A stretch of 64,000 nucleotides of DNA from positions 682,001 to 746,000 of the forward strand of contig NZ_SWDE01000001.1 of assembly GCF_013337185.1 (NCBI RefSeq), given 5' to 3'. The notes below the pieces were generated by a model that had not been told where the DNA came from, did not search any database, and saw only the letters and a program-made list of their open reading frames with translations. Below, in pieces: positions 27,251 through 36,222 of the stretch. Origin of the DNA: Serratia proteamaculans (GTDB lineage: Bacteria; Pseudomonadota; Gammaproteobacteria; Enterobacterales; Enterobacteriaceae). The first letter of the stretch is position 1. The number at the start of each line of letters is the position of its first letter. A program made the position numbers and the translations under genes.

Positions 27251-28329
27251 TGGCAAGTGTCGAACTGGTAAAAGTCGCCAAATACTATGGCAAGCAGCGG
27301 GTGCTGAATCCGCTGGATCTGACTATCCCCGACGGCAGCTTTACCGTGCTGGTTGGCCCGTCCGGCTGCGGCAAGTCCACGCTGCTGCGGCTGCTGGCCG
27401 GGCTGGATACGCTGACCGAAGGGGCGATCCTGCTGGATAAGCAAAAGATTAACGATCTGGATCCCGCCGATCGCGATATTGCCATGGTGTTCCAGAGCTA
27501 TGCGCTCTACCCGCACCTGACGGTGGCGGAAAACATGGCGTTCCACATGCAGGTGATGAAGGTCGCCAAAAGCGAACAACAGGCCAAGGTGCAGCAGGCA
27601 GCGCGCATTTTGGCAATCGACCATCTTTTACAACGCTACCCGAAAGAACTGTCCGGTGGCCAACGCCAGCGAGTGGCGATGGGCCGTGCTATGGTGCGTA
27701 ACCCGAAAGTGTTTTTATTCGATGAACCGCTGTCCAACCTCGACGCCCAACTGCGGATGGAGCTGCGCGCCGAGATTAAATCACTGCATCAGCAGTTCAA
27801 GACCACCACGGTGTACGTCACCCACGATCAGATTGAAGCGATGACGTTGGCCGACCAAATCGTGGTGATGAAAGACGGCAATATCGTGCAGCAAGGCAAG
27901 CCGCTGGAGATCTACGATGCGCCCGCCAATACCTTTGTGGCGCGTTTTATCGGCTCACCGCCAATGAATCTGTTGGAGGGTATCGTCACGCCATGCAATG
28001 ACCGGCCCGGAGTGACCTGCGGTGAACTGTGGTTCCCGCTGCCGGCCAAATGGCGATTGGCGACGCCCGGCAGCCCGGTGATCCTCGGGCTGCGGCCGCA
28101 CGATTTCCATTTGGTCGATGTCAGCGAACAACCTTCCGCCACCTTGCGCCTGATGGAGATCACCGGCGATGTCAGCCTTCTGCACCTGACCTGGGGCGGT
28201 TACCGCCTGCATGTGCAACTCAGCGGGCGGGTCAATGCCGAAAGCGGTCAACCGCTTTGGCTGATGCCCAACTTTGATGCGATCCACCTGTTCGATGCCG
28301 CAACAGGGCTACGATTGAGTGAAAATTGA
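27250..28329 (+). CDS. Sugar ABC transporter ATP-binding protein (MalK/UgpC type)
   Basis: 359 residues. Walker A GPSGCGKST is at 36-44, the Q loop at MVFQSYALYPHLT, the ABC signature LSGGQRQR near 135, Walker B VFLFDEPLSNLD near 158 and the His loop VYVTHDQIEA near 192. A C-terminal regulatory domain of about 120 residues follows, as in CUT1-family ATPases. I start it at 27250 (ATG in TGATG), since the frame's upstream extension lies inside the kinase gene. Last gene of the operon; a weak hairpin (28370-28394) follows. Confidence 0.9.
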   Translation: MASVELVKVAKYYGKQRVLNPLDLTIPDGSFTVLVGPSGCGKSTLLRLLAGLDTLTEGAILLDKQKINDLDPADRDIAMVFQSYALYPHLTVAENMAFHMQVMKVAKSEQQAKVQQAARILAIDHLLQRYPKELSGGQRQRVAMGRAMVRNPKVFLFDEPLSNLDAQLRMELRAEIKSLHQQFKTTTVYVTHDQIEAMTLADQIVVMKDGNIVQQGKPLEIYDAPANTFVARFIGSPPMNLLEGIVTPCNDRPGVTCGELWFPLPAKWRLATPGSPVILGLRPHDFHLVDVSEQPSATLRLMEITGDVSLLHLTWGGYRLHVQLSGRVNAESGQPLWLMPNFDAIHLFDAATGLRLSEN

Positions 28330-28489
28330 GTCGCTGATAATGCGCGAAGACTTAACCGGTAACCCCCTCAGCGGGCTCCATTGCTGCGCCCGCTAATTAT
28401 CACCTGCTTAAGCTCTTTTTAACCTCTGTGCGATGCGCTATGCTCCAAAACTCTGCCAGCGTTAACATTTTTGAAACGGGGTTTCTGTC

Positions 28490-28534
28490 ATGTCCATCTG
28501 CTGTTTTTGCTCCGCCCGGCGCACTCAACCATGA
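28490..28534 (+). CDS. Possible 14-codon leader peptide overlapping the exporter start
   Basis: ATG at 28490 opens a short frame MSICCFCSARRTQP whose TGA overlaps the ATG of the downstream exporter (ATGA at 28531). Three Cys and two Arg in 14 residues are unusual. The exporter lacks a clear ribosome site of its own, so re-initiation after this peptide would make sense. It could be chance: the frame is short and only ACGGGG upstream resembles a ribosome site. Confidence 0.35.
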   Translation: MSICCFCSARRTQP

Positions 28535-29952
28535 GTTTTTTTTCACGTGCCAGCGCGCTGCCGCTGCTGGTGGCGGGCGCCTTTTTTATGGAAAACCTCG
28601 ACGGCACGGTGATTGTCACCGCCATGCCGCAGATGGCGGCGGCCTTCGGCGTAAGGCCGGTGGACATGAACATTGGTATCTCGGCTTACATTCTGACGCT
28701 GACGGTGTTTATTCCTGCCAGTGGCTGGATTGCCAACCGCTTCGGCGCCCGCAATATCTTTGCCGCTGCGGTGCTGATTTTTACCCTGGCATCGGTACTG
28801 TGCGCCGCCAGCGTTGACCTGCCCACCTTCACCGCCGCCCGTATTCTTCAGGGCTTCGGCGGTGCACTGATGGTGCCGGTGGGTCGCCTGGTGGTGCTAC
28901 GCAACACGGCTAAACCGGACCTGATCAAGGCCATTGCCACCATTACCTGGCCAGGGTTGGTAGCCCCAATCCTCGGCCCGCCGGTCGGCGGTTTTATTAC
29001 CACCTACGCCTCATGGCACTGGATCTTTATTCTTAATGTGCCGCTGGGTATCGCCGCGCTGTGGTTGGCCTGGCGGCTGATCCCGCAGGAAGCACCGCAG
29101 AAAGGCGTGCCTTTTGACGCACTCGGCTTCGTGTTGACCGGCATCGCCTGCTTCGGCCTGATGTTCGGTCTGGATTTGATCAACCATCCGCAACTGTCCT
29201 GGCTGGTGCCTGCGCTTTGTATTATCGGCAGCCTGGCATTAGGCGCACTGGCGGTTCGTCACGCCAAACGCACCGAGCACCCGCTGATCAATCTGTGGGC
29301 GATGCGAATAAAAAGTTACGCGGTCACCATTTGGGGCGGCACGCTGTTTCGCATTGCCATTGGTGCCGTGCCCTTCCTGTTGCCGCTGCTGTTCCAGATC
29401 GGTTTTGGCCTGAACGCCTTCGACGCCGGGTTGCTGGTGCTGGCGGTATTTGCCGGGAATCTGGTGATGAAGCCGTTTACCTCGGCGGTGCTGTACCGTT
29501 TTCGCTTTCGCACCACGCTGGTGGTCAATGGTTTATTGAACGCCGCCACGATTTTCGCCTGTGCGCTGTTGACGCCACAGACCCCGACCTGGCTGATTCT
29601 GGCGCTGCTGTTCGTCAGTGGGCTGACGCGATCCATGCAGTTCACCGCGCTTAATACGCTGGCGTTTTCCGAAGTGCCGCAGCCGCAGATGAATGGCGCC
29701 AACACGCTGTTCAATGTGTCGCAGCAAATGGGCAGCGGCCTGGGTATCGCCATCGGCGCGCTGGCCCTGCGGCTGGCAGAGATGCTGATGCCGCAAACGG
29801 CCGAGCGTATCCCTCTGGCTGATTTTCAGTGGGCGTTTGTGGTTATCGGCGTGATTGCCCTGCTGGCGGTGATCGACTGCTTTACCCTGAGCGCCAACGC
29901 CGGCAGCGAGGTACGCCAGAGAACCCCCGCTACCGCCCCAGTGCAGAAATAA
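28531..29952 (+). CDS. MFS drug exporter, DHA2 (14-segment) family
   Basis: 473 residues from the ATG at 28531. Membrane segments begin at once (LPLLVAGAFFMENLDGTVIVTAMPQMAAAFG), with the family motif A-like loop SGWIANRFGARNIF and motif C region near LVAPILGPPVGGFIT (about 140-155). Such proteins expel hydrophobic drugs by proton antiport. The frame extends to a TTG at 28471 but that start has no support. No neighbouring regulator or fusion-protein gene is present, so it likely works alone. Substrates unknown. Confidence 0.82.
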   Translation: MSFFSRASALPLLVAGAFFMENLDGTVIVTAMPQMAAAFGVRPVDMNIGISAYILTLTVFIPASGWIANRFGARNIFAAAVLIFTLASVLCAASVDLPTFTAARILQGFGGALMVPVGRLVVLRNTAKPDLIKAIATITWPGLVAPILGPPVGGFITTYASWHWIFILNVPLGIAALWLAWRLIPQEAPQKGVPFDALGFVLTGIACFGLMFGLDLINHPQLSWLVPALCIIGSLALGALAVRHAKRTEHPLINLWAMRIKSYAVTIWGGTLFRIAIGAVPFLLPLLFQIGFGLNAFDAGLLVLAVFAGNLVMKPFTSAVLYRFRFRTTLVVNGLLNAATIFACALLTPQTPTWLILALLFVSGLTRSMQFTALNTLAFSEVPQPQMNGANTLFNVSQQMGSGLGIAIGALALRLAEMLMPQTAERIPLADFQWAFVVIGVIALLAVIDCFTLSANAGSEVRQRTPATAPVQK

Positions 29953-30049
29953 GTCGCATCTGCCGCCAATCAACGTAATATCGATGATCCGCCCCGTTTC
30001 ACCGGTGCGGATTTTTTGCCGTTTTGGCCTGAAAAGCGAGGTAATAATA

Positions 30050-30571
30050 ATGAATCACAGTGACCTTTCTCAGTGCCGCGTTAACACCGACCGGTTGTTG
30101 ATTGCCCCATTTACCGCAGCAGACGCCGACGATGTCTACCAGGCGATCACCCCTACCTTGACACGCTATATGAACTTTGAGCCCGAGGAGTCGCCGGAAG
30201 CCTTTGCCAACGTTTGGCAAACCTGGCTGCCGCTGATCCGCGAAGGCGAGGAAATGATTTACATCGCCCGGCTGCGCGACACCAAACAGTTTGTCGGCAT
30301 GGGCGGCGTTCACGACTTGTACAACACCACGCCTGAACTGGGCATCTGGGTGAAAGAGAACCTGCACGGCAAAGGCTACGGGCGCGAAATCGTTCACGCC
30401 ATGGCGGTGTGGGCAAGCGAGCGTTACCATCCGCGCCACTTTATCTACCCGGTGGCCGAACAGAATACGCCAAGCCGACGTATCGCCGAATCTCTGGGCG
30501 GCGTAGTGGCCGGCCGACGCGAAAACACCAAATACGACTGCGTGGTCTATCACATACCGCCACAGCTATAA
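30050..30571 (+). CDS. GNAT-family N-acetyltransferase (RimJ/RimL type)
   Basis: 173 residues from the ATG at 30050, which has GAGG 8 bp upstream. The fold is recognisable from NTDRLLIAPFTAADADDVYQ at the start, GMGGVHDLYNTTPELGIWV in the middle and the acetyl-CoA loop HGKGYGREIVHAMAVWA near 112-128, then ENTPSRRIAESLGG. It probably acetylates an amino group of a small molecule or protein N-terminus; the acceptor is unknown. A strong hairpin terminator follows. Confidence 0.8.
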   Translation: MNHSDLSQCRVNTDRLLIAPFTAADADDVYQAITPTLTRYMNFEPEESPEAFANVWQTWLPLIREGEEMIYIARLRDTKQFVGMGGVHDLYNTTPELGIWVKENLHGKGYGREIVHAMAVWASERYHPRHFIYPVAEQNTPSRRIAESLGGVVAGRRENTKYDCVVYHIPPQL

Positions 30572-30591
30572 TCGAAGTCATAGCATTGCCT

Positions 30592-30625
30592 AATGCCGCT
30601 CAGTGAATGCTGAGTGGCATTTTAT
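30592..30625 (+). terminator. Rho-independent terminator after the acetyltransferase
   Basis: 12-bp stem AATGCCGCTCAG / CTGAGTGGCATT with one G-T pair and a 6-base loop, followed by TTATT. Confidence 0.75.
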
Positions 30626-30710
30626 TATCCAAATTAAACTATCGTGTTGTTTGGCTAACCACAAAACGTAAGCTCATATAACCCATTGTTTTTCTCCGCT
30701 AGGATTTTCA

Positions 30711-30737
30711 CACACAAAAGACATTACAGTTTGTGTG
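30711..30737. promoter_or_regulatory. Inverted repeat upstream of the metalloprotease gene
   Basis: CACACAAA (30711-30718) and its exact complement TTTGTGTG (30730-30737) with an 11-base spacer, giving arms 19 bp apart centre to centre. It lies 44 bp before the metalloprotease start. It could be a repressor or activator site, or a 5'-UTR stem-loop. Confidence 0.4.
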
Positions 30738-30781
30738 GAAAATAAACGCTGAAATATTTTAATATCCTTAGGAGAACAACA

Positions 30782-32500
30782 ATGAGCAACAAAACCCTAT
30801 CAACCTCCCCTAACCAACTCGGTAGCGGTAATTTACCTTCAGGTTATGATGAGATTAATTTCAGGATGGAAAATGGCAACTGGACAAAGGAAATAAAACT
30901 GCCATTAGAACCTACCGATAAAAACAAGGTAAATATTATCTCTAACGCAGCTTATACTGCTTACCTTGATACTACAGAGGTCGACGTACCATTAAAGTCA
31001 ATACCTATTAAAACCGGAAGCAGCTTCACTCTGGTCTATCAGGCAAACATCAGCAAATGGTCCATTAGTGGACCTGGAATCAGTTATCTTTCACCTAATA
31101 GCGTTGGTGATACCATTCCTGAAAAACCAGACAATATCACTTTTTACACACTGGCTGACCACAACTGGGTCCCGGCAGTTACGCTACCCGCCAAGGCTAA
31201 CGATGGCGCCTATATTGTTGTCCGCTCCCGTGCAGCCTGGAACGCAAAAGTAAATACAACGAACATGTTGTATGCCAGCACGACCACTATCTTTACCAAT
31301 GACATTTATACCTTCAAATATCTGGCAGCATTTAATGGTTGGGTGATTGACTCCGCACCGATCCGAACTCTATTTGCTGATAATATTAACGTTCAAATGC
31401 CAAAACCGACTTCGCAGTTCACTGAGGTGAAATTTACAAGTCAGCACTGGATTGAGCTAATAAGACTGCCGGAAAACGCCGGCGATCGCGATAAAGTATC
31501 AATAAAATCTTCGTCCATTTTCTATGCAGCCATTGATGTCTCTAACGTCAATATGCCTGGCGCAATGTATTTATACAACGGTGACCAATATGATTTCATT
31601 TATATTTCCGAGAATAAAAAGTGGCAATTAATGAAACATCCAGACTCACGTTTCTACGCTTATGAGCTTCCTAATGGAAGACTTGGACAACTCGGCCGGC
31701 CACGCACGCTGATCCATGCTGGCGTCGGTAATCCTCATTCGCAATTGGAATTACCTGGAAACCAACCAGCGGGAAGCCGCGTCGTTATCACCAGTGATGC
31801 TGTCAAGGACTTTACCGTATTAGCCGATGGGAAAACCTATCCTGTTTCTAATGGTGAAATCGTGGCGTTTAAGGTGGATGAAAATAAAGCCTGGAGTAAA
31901 GAAACCATCACCATCGATCTATTGCTGCTTTACAGCGACAAAGCCGCCGCTCGAATGGGGGAGGACACCATGCGCAACCGGCTGATTGAGGGTTTCAATA
32001 TGACTAATGAGGCTCTGGAAAACTCCGGTGCCAACTTCCGCTATCGTATGCGTGGTCTGCGCCAGGTTGTTGCAAAAGACCATTGGAAAGAATTGATTGA
32101 CCCACTTCGTGAGTTACGCAGCGATCCTACCGTTCAGGGGTGGAGAGATAGTCTAAAAGCAGATGGCATTTACTATGAAGGTACTGAAGATGGTTGTGGT
32201 TTGGCCTGGCTTCGCTCCAGTGCCTACAACATGGTAGCTACCGGCTCAATCAATTGTGGCACCACGGTAATGCGACATGAACTTGGCCATAATATGGGCG
32301 TGAATCATGCCGATACAGGCAGTTCCTATAATCAGGGCTATTCATTGGTCAGGAGTATTATGGGTGGCAACACCATTCCCTATTACTCCACTCCACATCG
32401 CTATACTCAGGATTATGGCATTCCAATGGGGATCGTGGATAAGGTCGATGCTGTACGCGCGATGAATGAGTTTTCTGCGACGGTCGCCGCATACCGTTAA
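30782..32500 (+). CDS. Metzincin zinc metalloprotease with repeated N-terminal domains
   Basis: 572 residues. The C-terminal domain (about 376-572) has the zinc motif HELGHNMGVNH with His499, Glu500, His503 and His509, and a Met-turn SIMGG at Met527, so it is a metzincin akin to reprolysin/peptidyl-Asp endopeptidases. The first 375 residues hold three or four related units of about 75 residues (near 22-96, 117-192, 213-287, possibly 306-375), each ending in W-x-I/L after a Y-x-F/Y-x-Y strand. There is no signal peptide and no RTX repeat, so its export route is unclear. AGGAG precedes the ATG. The DNA is clearly richer in A and T than its neighbours, suggesting transfer. Target unknown; a secreted toxin or effector is possible. 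Confidence 0.8.
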   Translation: MSNKTLSTSPNQLGSGNLPSGYDEINFRMENGNWTKEIKLPLEPTDKNKVNIISNAAYTAYLDTTEVDVPLKSIPIKTGSSFTLVYQANISKWSISGPGISYLSPNSVGDTIPEKPDNITFYTLADHNWVPAVTLPAKANDGAYIVVRSRAAWNAKVNTTNMLYASTTTIFTNDIYTFKYLAAFNGWVIDSAPIRTLFADNINVQMPKPTSQFTEVKFTSQHWIELIRLPENAGDRDKVSIKSSSIFYAAIDVSNVNMPGAMYLYNGDQYDFIYISENKKWQLMKHPDSRFYAYELPNGRLGQLGRPRTLIHAGVGNPHSQLELPGNQPAGSRVVITSDAVKDFTVLADGKTYPVSNGEIVAFKVDENKAWSKETITIDLLLLYSDKAAARMGEDTMRNRLIEGFNMTNEALENSGANFRYRMRGLRQVVAKDHWKELIDPLRELRSDPTVQGWRDSLKADGIYYEGTEDGCGLAWLRSSAYNMVATGSINCGTTVMRHELGHNMGVNHADTGSSYNQGYSLVRSIMGGNTIPYYSTPHRYTQDYGIPMGIVDKVDAVRAMNEFSATVAAYR

Positions 32501-32547
32501 ATGTTGACCTAACCGGTGCATCTGCGCCGGTTAATCAAAAGCAGTTT

Positions 32548-32586
32548 AAAAAACCGCCCGACTGGCAACAGCGATGGCGGTTTTTC
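32548..32586 (+). terminator. Terminator of the metalloprotease gene
   Basis: AAAAAACCGCC (32548-32558) pairs with GGCGGTTTTT (32576-32585) around a 17-base loop, with a T-run at the end. A second, weaker hairpin (AACCGG/CCGGTT) precedes it at 32511-32532. Confidence 0.7.
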
Positions 32587-32675
32587 AGCGTGGATGCCGA
32601 TAACCACTGCCACTTGAAGTAGGATTATGCTAATGCTAGTAGCATCCTGATTAAAAACAGTTGAGGAACAGCAAC

Positions 32676-33425
32676 ATGATCATTTTTGTTACGGGCGCTA
32701 CATCCGGTTTTGGTGAAGCCATTACACGACGCTTTATCCGCGAAGGGCATCAGGTGATTGCCTCCGGTCGTCGTGTCGAACGTCTGGAAGAGTTGAAAGA
32801 CGAGTTGGGTGAAGCTCTGCATATCGTCCGCCTCGACGTACGTAATCGCGCGGCCATTCAGCAGGTGATTGATGAGCTGCCTGCGGCGCTGCGCCACATC
32901 GACGTCCTGGTGAATAACGCCGGGCTGGCGTTGGGTATGGAACCCGCGCACAAGGCCAATGCCGATGACTGGGAAACCATGATCGACACCAACACCAAAG
33001 GCCTGGTGAACATGACCCGCGCCCTGCTGCCGGACATGGTAGAACGTAATATTGGCCACGTGATCAATATCGGCTCGGTTGCAGCCAACTGGCCGTATGC
33101 CGGTGGCAACGTTTATGGCGCAACCAAAGCCTTTGTCAAACAGTTCAGCCTCGGCCTGCGTGCCGATCTGCACGGTACCCGCATCCGTGTGACCGATATT
33201 GAACCGGGCCTGGTGGGCGGCACCGAATTTTCCAACGTGCGTTTCAAAGGCGACGACGGCAAGGTGGAAAAGGTCTACGACGGTGCCAATGCGCTGACGC
33301 CAGAAGATATCGCCGAGTCGGTGTTCTGGGTCGCGACCCTGCCGGCCCACGTCAACATTAACTCGCTGGAAATCATGCCGGTCAGCCAATCCTTTGCCGG
33401 GTTGAATATCCACCGCGAGTCTTAA
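32676..33425 (+). CDS. ydfG: NADP-dependent 3-hydroxy acid / L-allo-threonine dehydrogenase
   Basis: Short-chain dehydrogenase of 249 residues. The nucleotide motif TGATSGFG is at 6-13, NNAG at 80-83, and the catalytic Ser134, Tyr147 and Lys151 are all in place (NIGSVAANWP, VYGATKAF). The E. coli enzyme oxidises serine, allo-threonine and 3-hydroxy acids and also reduces malonic semialdehyde. The ATG at 32676 has GAGGAA upstream; a TTG at 32661 is not needed. It is on the same strand as in E. coli, where dcp is its divergent neighbour. Confidence 0.93.
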   Translation: MIIFVTGATSGFGEAITRRFIREGHQVIASGRRVERLEELKDELGEALHIVRLDVRNRAAIQQVIDELPAALRHIDVLVNNAGLALGMEPAHKANADDWETMIDTNTKGLVNMTRALLPDMVERNIGHVINIGSVAANWPYAGGNVYGATKAFVKQFSLGLRADLHGTRIRVTDIEPGLVGGTEFSNVRFKGDDGKVEKVYDGANALTPEDIAESVFWVATLPAHVNINSLEIMPVSQSFAGLNIHRES

Positions 33426-33432
33426 TCCTGAG

Positions 33433-33458
33433 CGGCAGGGCCTGCCCCTGCCGTCGTT
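33433..33458. terminator. Hairpin between convergent ydfG and ynfA
   Basis: 8-bp stem CGGCAGGG / CCCTGCCG with a 5-base loop, followed by TCGTTTCTC. It fills the 35-bp gap between the two stops and may end both transcripts. Confidence 0.55.
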
Positions 33459-33460
33459 TC

Positions 33461-33787
33461 TCAGGCCGCACGCCAGCCGGAAACGATAATCAGCATACCG
33501 GCCAGAGCCACACCGGCCCCCAGCCAGTCCAGCGCCGATAACTTCACTCCGTCCACCACCCGCAGCCACAGTAACGCCGTTGCTACATAGACCCCGCCAT
33601 AGGCCGCGTAGACCCGCCCACTGGCCGCCGGGTGCAGCGTCAACAACCAGACAAACAGCATCAGACTGGCCGCTGCCGGTAACAGTAACCAGGCACTGGC
33701 GCTTTTTTTCAGCCACAAATAGGGCAAGAAACAGCCGATGATCTCGGCCAATGCGGTGGCGAAAAATAACAGGGTAGTCTTTAACAT
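33461..33787 (-). CDS. ynfA: YnfA-family inner-membrane protein
   Basis: 108 residues made of four hydrophobic segments ([20 protein letters not shown], then [33 protein letters not shown] and [15 protein letters not shown]). This is the usual size and pattern of the YnfA/UPF0060 family, a four-helix relative of small multidrug exporters. Function is not settled. It lies beside ydfG and ynfB. Confidence 0.9.
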
Positions 33788-33935
33788 CGGGGAAACTTTC
33801 TCTCTGTTAACTAAACAAGGCCGTGCTTGACTGGTGCAGTCCGACAGCGCGATGGTATATTTATCAACACGCCTGCGGGCGCGGTAAAGACAGTGTTGCC
33901 GTTTTCAGGCAACACTAACTCATAAGGATGAAACG

Positions 33936-34304
33936 ATGAAAACACTTTCGACTCAACGACTGCTGCGCGGGATGCTGCCGGTCGCCATGCTGATGCTGAT
34001 GGGTGCCTGGCAGGCTCCGGCGCTGGCCGCCAGCTGCACACAGGGCAGCACCTGCGTTACCGTCGATGGCAGCAACAGCGGCGCAATGAGTACCGAAGCG
34101 GCCCGTCAGAGCAAACAGCAGTTTAACGATACCAAATCCCTGCGCAACAAGGTTAATACCCGCGTGGAGAAAGAGTTCGACAAGGTAGACAAGGCGATTG
34201 ATAGCGAAGAACGCTGCGATGACAGCCTGAACGTTAACGCTTACTGGGAACCCAACACCCGTAAATGTCTGGATCGCCAGACCGGTCGTCAGATTAATCC
34301 TTAA
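33936..34304 (+). CDS. ynfB: YnfB-family (DUF1283) periplasmic protein
   Basis: 122 residues with a signal peptide ([24 protein letters not shown]) and a mature part holding four Cys (CTQGSTC, ERCDD, RKCLD), likely two disulfides, plus a charged helical stretch [23 protein letters not shown] shortened here to its key residues. It matches the DUF1283 family that sits next to ynfA in E. coli. Function unknown. It is followed by ynfD after 90 bp. Confidence 0.87.
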
Positions 34305-34394
34305 TCTGGTTGCAGCAAGGCGGTGGCCGTTACCCTACGCCACCGTTGCTGCTATCCTGACAAAGGAAGCTCATTTTCAAATAAGGACGAATGG

Positions 34395-34694
34395 ATGAAA
34401 AAAGCGCTTATCCTGGGTGCACTGCTGATGGCCGCTGCGCCATTAGCCGCCCTGGCCTCATGCGAAAGCGTGAAGGCAGACATTTCGCAGAAAATCGTCA
34501 AAAACGGCGTGCCGGAATCTGGTTTCAAACTGGATATCGTGCCGAACGATCAGGCCCAACAGGCCGGTGGTCTGGTAGTAGGCCACTGCGAAAACGACAC
34601 GCAGAAGATTGTTTATACTCGCCTTGGTAACGGCGATGACAACGGTGACGCGGCTCAGACCGGCACCAGCCAGGATACGAAAACCTCGCAATAA
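34395..34694 (+). CDS. ynfD: YnfD-family (DUF1161) periplasmic protein
   Basis: 99 residues: a signal peptide MKKALILGALLMAAAPLAALA, then the DUF1161 pattern CESVKADISQKIVKNGVPE, FKLDIVPN and VVGHCENDTQKIVY with two Cys that may pair. The C-terminal tail is Asp/Thr/Gln-rich. The start at 34395 has AAGGACG upstream; an ATG four bases earlier is out of frame. Function unknown; small stress-related secreted proteins of this family are common in enterobacteria. Confidence 0.85.
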   Translation: MKKALILGALLMAAAPLAALASCESVKADISQKIVKNGVPESGFKLDIVPNDQAQQAGGLVVGHCENDTQKIVYTRLGNGDDNGDAAQTGTSQDTKTSQ

Positions 34695-34704
34695 TTACCG
34701 TTTT

Positions 34705-34734
34705 AGGGCGCTCTGTGCGCCCTTTCCTTTTTAT
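34705..34734 (+). terminator. Terminator after ynfD
   Basis: 7-bp stem AGGGCGC / GCGCCCT with a 5-base loop, then TTCCTTTTTATTT. It lies right at the end of the convergent exporter gene. Confidence 0.7.
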
Positions 34735-36222
34735 TTATGCCTGCTCTGCCTCTTCCCCCTCACCCTGTGGCCGATGCCGCGCGGGGATCAGCATCGCCGC
34801 CGCCAGTGCCAGCAATGACAACAGTGCAGAAACCAAAAACACCCAATGCAACGAAGCGGCCACCTGCTGCGTCATGCTCGCCAGTATTTCCGGCGTCATC
34901 GCACTACGCGCTGCCGGCTCCATCAGTTGCTGTACCGGATCGGTCGTTTGCGGCAAACGAAGCTGCAGGTTGATATTCAGCGTCGCACCTAAAATAGCGG
35001 TACCCATCGCCGACCCCATCATACGGGTAAACACCGTGCAGGCGGTGGCAATGCCGCGGATGCTGTGGTGAGCCGCGTTCTGCACCGAAACCAGAAACGT
35101 GGTGTTGCACAACCCCATACCGGCACCGACCATAAACGCCGCCACCCGGCCCCACAATAAACCGCCGGTCGGCTGCAGCAACAATAGAATCAGGCCACCG
35201 GCCAGTAATAACAACGCCCCCAGTAACGCCGTGGTGCGATAAGACGTCATCAGCATCAGTCGACCGCTGAAGGTACTGGCCAACGGCCAGCCAATCGACA
35301 TCAGTGCCAGCGTGGTACCCGCTTCCAAGGGTGTTCCACCCATCACCCCCTGAATAAAGGTCGGCAGAAATGCACTGATGCCCATCATCGCCGCGCCAAT
35401 CACCAGACCGCCAATATTACCGGCGACGATCACCCGGCTTTGCCATAACGCCAGCGGGAACAGTGGCTCCGGCGCTCGTCGTTCCTGGCGGATCAGCAAC
35501 ATCAGCGAAACGGCCGCTAACGCCAACAGCGGCAGCACCCACCAACCGAGATTTTCTGCCTGCAGCAGTGACAGCAGCAGCGCGGTAACAAACAGCGTCA
35601 GCCAGGCGGTCCCCGCCAGATCCAGCGCATGTTTACGCATCTGCTGGCGAGAAGGCAGATAACGAGCCAGGAGAAACATCGCCAGCAAACCGATCGGCAA
35701 GTTGACCCAGAATACTAACGCCCAGGGCAAATGCTGGACGATAAACGCCCCCAGCAACGGGCCAATAATCGCCGACACGCCCCAAACGCTGGAAATGTAG
35801 CCCATCACCTTGGGCCGCTCGGTAGGACTGTAGATATCCCCAATAATGGTGGTCGCTGTCGGCATAATTGCCCCGGCGCCCAGCCCCTGCAACAACCTAA
35901 AACCAATCAGCCAGTACATGTTCGGCGAGAAACCGCACAGCACCGAACCCAGTAAAAACAGCGATGCACCAAAGAAAAATACCCGTTTGCGCCCCAGCAG
36001 GTCCGCCAACCGACCATAAATGGGAATGGTGATGGCCTGCGCCAACAGATAGACCGCGAATACCCAACCCAGCAGGGAAAAGCCGCCAAGATCACCGATA
36101 ATGGTTGGCATCGCCGTGGCGACAATGGTCGCCTCTATGGCCGACATGAACATCGCCAACATGCAGGCAATCAGGATTAAGGGACGATGAGCGATTGGAG
36201 CAGGTGTCTCGTTATTTGTCAT
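34735..36222 (-). CDS. MFS drug exporter, DHA2 (14-segment) family
   Basis: 495 residues with 14 hydrophobic segments. Family motifs are SAIEATIVATAMPTI in the first segment, YGRLADLLGRKRVF in the first loop and SAIIGPLLGAFIV (motif C) near 150. It resembles EmrB/Bmr-type proton-driven exporters of hydrophobic drugs or dyes. It has no adjacent EmrA-like partner. It converges with ynfD and is divergent from clcB across 274 bp. The DHA2 gene at 28531 has a different sequence, so this is not a recent duplicate. Substrate unknown. Confidence 0.85.
   Translation of the reverse strand: MTNNETPAPIAHRPLILIACMLAMFMSAIEATIVATAMPTIIGDLGGFSLLGWVFAVYLLAQAITIPIYGRLADLLGRKRVFFFGASLFLLGSVLCGFSPNMYWLIGFRLLQGLGAGAIMPTATTIIGDIYSPTERPKVMGYISSVWGVSAIIGPLLGAFIVQHLPWALVFWVNLPIGLLAMFLLARYLPSRQQMRKHALDLAGTAWLTLFVTALLLSLLQAENLGWWVLPLLALAAVSLMLLIRQERRAPEPLFPLALWQSRVIVAGNIGGLVIGAAMMGISAFLPTFIQGVMGGTPLEAGTTLALMSIGWPLASTFSGRLMLMTSYRTTALLGALLLLAGGLILLLLQPTGGLLWGRVAAFMVGAGMGLCNTTFLVSVQNAAHHSIRGIATACTVFTRMMGSAMGTAILGATLNINLQLRLPQTTDPVQQLMEPAARSAMTPEILASMTQQVAASLHWVFLVSALLSLLALAAAMLIPARHRPQGEGEEAEQA

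What the first reader, a model, noticed from the sequence alone, without database searches (positions are those of the whole stretch)
30782..32500. Orphan AT-rich metzincin with repeated N-terminal modules and no signal peptide
Seen: a full HExxHxxGxxH-type zinc motif (His499 to His509), a Met-turn at 527, and three to four related ~75-residue units in the first 375 residues. The gene is clearly richer in A and T than its neighbours, stands alone with its own terminator and has no leader peptide. Known: metzincins are nearly always exported. Inference: a horizontally acquired toxin or effector, whose export uses type VI, another specialised system or lysis; the N-terminal units may bind glycans or proteins. 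This is the best candidate for something undescribed in the window.
Basis: partly seen in the sequence, partly recalled or inferred. Interest (0 to 1): 0.72.

Follow-up and report, generated by a model that had tools for sequence, protein, structure and literature searches.

The report
Leaderless CpaA-like mucin-cutting protease gene
This bacterial gene encodes a relative of a known protease that cuts sugar-coated proteins, but it and its closest relatives have no export tag, and no helper gene was found beside them, so how the enzyme leaves the cell is an open and testable question.

Summary
ORF 30782-32500 (572 aa) has HELGHNMGVNH at 499-509, Met527, four related N-terminal modules, the lowest GC of 45 window ORFs and no signal peptide. 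It is not an undescribed fold: it aligns end to end with the Acinetobacter glycoprotease CpaA (PDB 6o38, E 9e-99), and the modules are StcE-type beta-sandwiches. The difference is export. CpaA has a signal peptide, leaves by type II secretion and needs the chaperone CpaB. This protein has no leader and no CpaB among the neighbours tested. The same holds for its closest relatives (55-66% identical): Pectobacterium plasmid Drgb3 from a cabbage-fly gut, tsetse-symbiont Sodalis plasmids, and another chromosome of the same family. All four more distant relatives read have leader-like N-termini. The gene is a lone ~1.97 kb insertion: 1 of 30 genus genomes has it; 24 of the other 29 hold the flanks 38-78 nt apart. 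Best reading: an O-glycoprotease for mucin-like (perhaps insect gut) glycoproteins, made in the cytoplasm and released without Sec, most plausibly by holin/lysis (type 10) release. Activity and export route are inferred; type 10 genes were not sought in this genome.

The parts
30782..32500 (+). CpaA-like metzincin ORF, 572 aa, no signal peptide
30770..30774 (+). AGGAG ribosome-binding site, supporting the annotated ATG
   Evidence: read from the sequence
30866..31066 (+). StcE-type beta-sandwich module 1 (about residues 29-95)
31136..31354 (+). StcE-type beta-sandwich module 2 (residues 119-191)
   Evidence: (best stretch)
31436..31627 (+). StcE-type beta-sandwich module 3 (about residues 219-282)
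31697..31894 (+). StcE-type beta-sandwich module 4 (about residues 306-371; boundaries approximate)
   Evidence: Pfam counts four stretches; placed by eye on the alignment to CpaA; not found by the self-search
31895..32497 (+). Reprolysin/adamalysin-like catalytic domain (residues 372-572)
32276..32308 (+). HELGHNMGVNH zinc site (residues 499-509); Glu500 aligns with CpaA Glu520
   Evidence: the E520A mutant of CpaA is inactive, PMC7542363 passages
32360..32362 (+). Met527, candidate Met-turn
32195..32257 (+). Cys472 to Cys492, the only two cysteines, aligned with CpaA Cys491 and Cys512
30572..32543 (.). Stretch absent from relatives (insertion of about 1972 nt holding this one gene)
   Evidence: edges from the G019 and G020 alignments
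30592..30621 (+). Hairpin at the left edge of the insertion; similar hairpins are dispersed in other genomes of the genus
32548..32585 (.). Terminator-like inverted repeat in the flank shared with empty-site relatives

Best explanation
A horizontally acquired member of the CpaA branch of metzincin glycoproteases. Four StcE-type Ig-like modules and a reprolysin-like zinc domain form a cleft that recognises and cuts O-glycosylated, mucin-like proteins. It belongs to a sub-branch that lacks the Sec signal peptide and a linked CpaB chaperone. It therefore folds in the cytoplasm without a linked CpaB and meets its substrates only when released without Sec, most plausibly by holin/endolysin (type 10) or other programmed lysis of some cells in an animal, perhaps insect, gut. 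Shown: homology, architecture, conserved catalytic residues, no leader in this sub-branch, no CpaB among neighbouring ORFs tested, lone insertion, sequence constraint. Inferred: glycoprotease activity, extracellular site of action, lysis as the route, insect host.
For: CpaA 6o38 aligned over residues 9-570, E 9.3e-99; NF033511 CpaA over 6-572, 579.9 bits; four StcE modules. Zinc histidines, Glu500, Met527 and both cysteines are kept in 4 of 4 leaderless proteins of alignment A4 (window, Drgb3, pSG4, G771). pN is below pS in all 6 pairs of those four genes; window against Drgb3 gives pN/pS 0.28 overall and 0.16 in the catalytic domain, synonymous sites saturated. Leader-like hydropathy in 0 of 5 leaderless proteins (the four plus pSG2; -0.16 to 0.62) and in 4 of 4 distant relatives (2.32 to 2.94). 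Leaderless proteins begin about where mature CpaA begins. CpaB (NF033512, cut-off 90) lies next to Acinetobacter CpaA (251.8 bits) and the G052 pair (94.0); it matched 0 of 7 ORFs beside the window gene and 0 of 20 ORFs near the four leaderless relatives. Of the carriers, the two with names and sources come from insects: Delia radicum intestine and Glossina. Literature, passages only: CpaA cuts O-glycoproteins, leaves by T2SS and depends on CpaB (PMC7542363); Y. entomophaga releases a cocktail that nearly all lacks signal sequences by T10SS-dependent lysis, and a figure legend says the S. [quoted passage not shown] S. [quoted passage not shown] a Serratia mucinase, SmE, is described as degrading mosquito gut mucins (PMC10550946).
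Against: Score below the curated CpaA cut-off (579.9 against 750). CpaA Trp493, which shapes its Pro-Ser/Thr selectivity, is Leu474 here, and PMC7542363 says glycoproteases cannot be assigned from sequence alone. The genome has a T2SS secretin and a T6SS gene, so other routes exist. Hosts of the window genome and G771 are unknown. PMC5778951 reports the chitinases of lysis-cassette mutants accumulating in the periplasm, so in that paper the cassette was not simply a cytoplasm-to-outside route. The Y. entomophaga paper's main text does not mention proteases, peptidases, enhancin or mucin. An active protease in the cytoplasm without its CpaB needs explaining. pSG2 has lost one of the two cysteines and its usual C-terminus. 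No expression or activity data.
Confidence: 0.45

Rival explanations
1. Same enzyme, but carried out of the living cell by a specialised leader-independent system: type VI, or the flagellar type III apparatus.
For: A T6SS gene (TIGR03355) above cut-off in this genome, G771 and G052. A hit of 602.5 bits to the SctV/HrcV model, below its cut-off of 692.25, which I read as flagellar FlhA, in this genome. Flagellar export of non-flagellar proteins has been proposed in entomopathogens, with a caution (PMC6023292 passages).
Against: No vgrG, PAAR, adaptor or immunity gene was recognised among the annotated genes or ORFs read or scanned beside it and its relatives; unlinked partners are not excluded. 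The stretch before the first conserved module is only about 8-10 residues and differs among relatives, leaving little room for a conserved N-terminal signal. An injectisome gene above cut-off was found in G771 only, of 3 genomes searched.
Confidence: 0.2
2. A cytoplasmic protein with no export: an intracellular protease, or a leftover of a secreted enzyme that is released only by accident.
For: No leader in 5 of 5 near relatives including itself and no CpaB in the neighbouring ORFs tested. The pSG2 copy has a changed C-terminus and has lost one cysteine.
Against: Sequence constraint on the catalytic domain and retention of the zinc site and both cysteines in 4 of 4 leaderless proteins of A4. 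Carriage on several plasmids and in lone chromosomal insertions. StcE modules retained, six in G771.
Confidence: 0.2
3. Sec/type II export after all, with the leader missed because of a wrong start or a sequencing error.
For: The genome has a T2SS secretin above cut-off (491.6 against 351.35 bits) and the mature part is CpaA-like.
Against: A good ribosome-binding site precedes the ATG and the open frame upstream has no hydrophobic codons. Drgb3, pSG4, pSG2 and G771 also begin directly before a first module without a leader.
Confidence: 0.03

Closest known systems
CpaA of Acinetobacter (PDB 6o38; NCBIfam NF033511; listed as M72 metzincin in PMC7542363)
   Same: End-to-end alignment, four StcE-type Ig-like modules plus C-terminal reprolysin-like domain, zinc site, the two aligned cysteines, Asn551 equivalent kept
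   Different: 32% identical, 579.9 bits against cut-off 750; no signal peptide; no CpaB among neighbours tested; Trp493 is Leu474
M12 family metallo-peptidases of Pectobacterium plasmid Drgb3 and Sodalis plasmids pSG4 and pSG2
   Same: 58-66% identical, about the same length, same leaderless start, no CpaB among neighbouring ORFs tested
   Different: On plasmids rather than a chromosomal insertion; the pSG2 copy has a diverged C-terminus
   Same: Leaderless, lone gene among genes such as truC, a flavodoxin gene and dapD, 55% identical over the shared part
   Different: 806 aa with six StcE modules
StcE / TagA (M66) mucinases
   Same: StcE-type beta-sandwich modules and metzincin zinc site
   Different: M66 model below its cut-off (17.2 against 20.6); different domain organisation (PMC7542363 passages)

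Membership tests
CpaA (NCBIfam NF033511) | Score at or above the curated cut-off of 750 bits | tested here: not met
   579.9 bits; the G052 proteins, which have leaders and a CpaB neighbour, also miss it with 454.3 and 468.2
CpaA (NCBIfam NF033511) | Four StcE-type Ig-like modules followed by a metzincin domain | tested here: met
CpaA (NCBIfam NF033511) | Catalytic HExxHxxGxxH and Met | tested here: met
CpaA (NCBIfam NF033511) | Sec signal peptide for T2SS secretion | tested here: not met
   hydropathy and reading-frame inspection, no SignalP
CpaA (NCBIfam NF033511) | Adjacent CpaB chaperone | tested here: not met
   0 of 7 neighbouring ORFs match NF033512. A whole-genome search with one CpaB protein gave 0 matches, but without a positive control
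CpaA (NCBIfam NF033511) | Cleavage of O-glycosylated proteins at Pro-Ser/Thr | not testable with these tools
   needs an enzyme assay
StcE / peptidase M66 (PF10462) | M66 catalytic domain above cut-off | tested here: not met
   17.2 bits against 20.6
Type 10 (holin) secretion cargo | No signal peptide | tested here: met
   not diagnostic, since ChiA and Cbp21 have one (PMC5778951 passage)
Type 10 (holin) secretion cargo | Release depends on a holin/endolysin cassette in the same genome | not tested
Type VI secretion effector | Linked vgrG, PAAR, adaptor or immunity gene | tested here: not met
   none recognised among 7 window ORFs scanned or in the relatives' loci; unlinked partners not excluded

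The most novel reading that the evidence does not exclude
A branch of T2SS-type glycoproteases has dropped both its signal peptide and its dedicated chaperone and been rewired as cargo of a lysis-type release system, spreading by plasmids and lone insertions among insect-associated Enterobacterales, where it dissolves gut mucins.
Probability: 0.3. Interest if true: 0.62.

Novelty: new variant of a known kind. Interest (0 to 1): 0.42.

Why it matters
CpaA is a studied case of chaperone-dependent type II secretion. A sub-branch with the same architecture but no leader and no linked chaperone is a natural contrast: it asks what CpaB is for and how a secreted enzyme changes export route. If released by lysis, it would extend the recent finding that Yersinia entomophaga releases leaderless toxins through a type 10 system to a mucin-type glycoprotease, and would point to a role in insect gut colonisation. 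Leaderless glycoproteases that fold without a chaperone could also be convenient reagents for glycoproteomics.

Tried and rejected
Undescribed fold: rejected, full-length match to 6o38. Wrong start: rejected, see rivals. Phage origin: the two 'Acinetobacter phage' hits look like mislabelled bacterial contigs; I read the flanks of one of the two, which hold many metabolic genes and a cpaB. One scan of viral contigs gave no relative. Two genome-contig scans gave no relative, though relatives exist elsewhere, so those scans say little. AlphaFold2 on the single sequence was useless (mean pLDDT 32.5) and was not used. The eCIS search was uninformative: Pvc16_N rang in 0 of 3 genomes and 0 of 14 controls. 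The CpaB search of this genome had no positive control. 20,395 E. coli records held no similar DNA to 30572-32543, and PLSDB none to 28000-36000 at megablast level. At class level 6 of 369 genomes matched, in full only the window genome; most weaker hits match only the catalytic region. No paper in the held library has 'CpaA-like' or 'CpaA homolog'; other spellings were not searched. Papers on Sodalis plasmid metalloproteases, Serratia with CpaA, and peritrophic mucin with Serratia were seen as listings only, save PMC10550946. The CpaA-CpaB structure and interaction papers are not held.

Full report
WHAT IS THERE. The ORF at 30782-32500 encodes 572 residues from an ATG preceded by AGGAG. The open frame extends only 12 codons upstream and codes for no hydrophobic stretch. 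GC is 45.6% against a mean of 58.2%, the lowest of 45 ORFs; residues 1-375 are at 43.3% and the rest at 49.9%.

WHAT IT IS. A search of solved structures gives CpaA of Acinetobacter (6o38) over residues 9-570 at E 9.3e-99; the next hit is at E 0.024. NCBIfam gives CpaA over 6-572 at 579.9 bits, below its cut-off of 750. Pfam gives four StcE_b-sandwich stretches and three Reprolysin models above cut-off. Repeats and catalytic domain together are the CpaA architecture.

WHERE ELSE. Of 30 genomes of the genus, 1 (this one) has it. In 295 order-level genomes 20 matched this protein; besides this genome one (G052) matched over the full length, twice, at 34-35%. In 394 order-level genomes 34 matched a profile; full-length matches were this genome, G771 and G052. 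In 369 class-level genomes 6 matched, only this one in full. These draws overlap. Among 72,556 plasmid records 50 matched, 6 over at least 80% of the query: Pectobacterium Drgb3 (66%) and five Sodalis records (59%). Two of 50,697 phage records matched, both Acinetobacter contigs that I take to be mislabelled.

THE LEADERLESS BRANCH. The window protein, Drgb3, pSG4, pSG2 and G771 all start directly before a first module. The highest hydropathy of a 10-residue stretch in their first 45 residues is -0.16 to 0.62, against 2.32 to 2.94 in Acinetobacter CpaA, the two G052 paralogues and the Photobacterium protein. An unrooted FastTree of 8 sequences separates the groups with local support 0.964 (pSG2 left out); with so few sequences this is suggestive only. 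CpaB (NF033512) is next to Acinetobacter CpaA and the G052 pair. It matched 0 of 7 ORFs beside the window gene and 0 of 20 ORFs near the four relatives, out of 64 ORFs listed there besides the protease genes, many of them overlapping chance ORFs. The window neighbours are an acetyltransferase-like gene (weak matches only, at most 16.8 bits) and ydfG (493.2 bits, above cut-off). I did not look for CpaB beside the Photobacterium gene.

HOW IT CAME. In 24 of the other 29 genus genomes both flanks are found in place with 38-78 nt between the aligned ends; the remaining 5 gave no flank match (4) or only a 27-nt match (1). In G019 the gap is 56 nt, here 1972 nt (30572-32543). An alignment of six empty sites shows the first arm of the downstream inverted repeat in all six and the second arm in four; the other two stretches were cut short of it. 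In G771 the gene sits alone between a flavodoxin gene with truC on one side and DUF3461 and dapD on the other. A hairpin at the left edge (z -3.29) resembles hairpins dispersed in other genomes of the genus (7 copies aligned).

IS IT FUNCTIONAL. The zinc ligands, Glu500, both cysteines and Met527 are kept in 4 of 4 leaderless proteins of alignment A4. Against the Drgb3 gene pN is 0.22 overall, 0.27 in the modules and 0.12 in the catalytic domain, with pS near saturation at 0.78; pN is below pS in all 6 pairs of the four genes. The residue at CpaA Trp493, which influences Pro selectivity (PMC7542363 passages), is Leu/Leu/Met/Leu in the four, and Leu and Arg in the G052 pair; Asn551, modelled to contact GalNAc, is Asn in three and Ser in G771. 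The cleavage preference may thus differ from CpaA. pSG2, not in A4, has lost one cysteine and its usual C-terminus.

HOW IT MAY WORK. CpaA cuts O-glycoproteins, leaves by T2SS and depends on membrane-bound CpaB (PMC7542363 passages; PMC6299215 passages). Without a leader the Sec/T2SS route should be closed to this protein, although the genome has a T2SS secretin. It also has a T6SS gene and, by score, only what I read as flagellar FlhA. The literature gives a fitting alternative in related bacteria: T10SS-dependent lysis in Yersinia entomophaga releases toxins that nearly all lack signals, and a legend says the S. [quoted passage not shown] Against a simple reading, chitinases of S. marcescens cassette mutants were reported to accumulate in the periplasm (PMC5778951 passage). 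I put lysis-type release at about 0.4, other leader-independent routes at about 0.2 and no export at about 0.2. The insect-gut setting rests on Drgb3 (Delia radicum intestine; the plasmid is discussed in PMC5404199, passage) and Sodalis (tsetse) only.

LIMITS. No call names the organism; that the genus is Serratia is my inference from recall. T10SS genes were not sought. SignalP was not available. The structure model failed. The names FlhA and T6SS sheath for the model hits, and the metzincin Met-turn, are from recall.

Noticed in passing
window 30583-30631: A hairpin element at the left edge of the insertion resembles hairpins with a TTTTTTATCC tail dispersed in other genomes of the genus. 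One search listed no second copy in this genome, but it scored only 10 of 36 candidate places there. It may be a repeat or shared terminator carried in with the gene.
   Followed up: partly
L071 8659-11079: The G771 homologue has six StcE modules, apparently by duplication of the first two, joined by a linker.
   Followed up: partly
L024 (CAKLQH020000020.1): A record labelled Acinetobacter phage carries cpaA, cpaB and many metabolic genes; it looks like a mislabelled bacterial contig.
   Followed up: no
L025 7812-10697: A Photobacterium damselae plasmid protein joins a shorter CpaA-like protease (two StcE stretches) to five PAN stretches and a crystallin-like domain.
   Followed up: no
L026 8170-15028: G052 carries two leader-bearing CpaA-like paralogues in tandem with one CpaB-like gene (94.0 bits, cut-off 90).
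   Followed up: partly
L023 21560-22099: About 3 kb from the Sodalis pSG2 protease lies a lytic-transglycosylase-like ORF whose best match is the type III secretion protein IagB, 140.6 bits, below its cut-off of 208.
   Followed up: no
G000:C17:188891-190054: A second, partial type II secretin-like match in this genome has one TGA inside the matched stretch.
   Followed up: no
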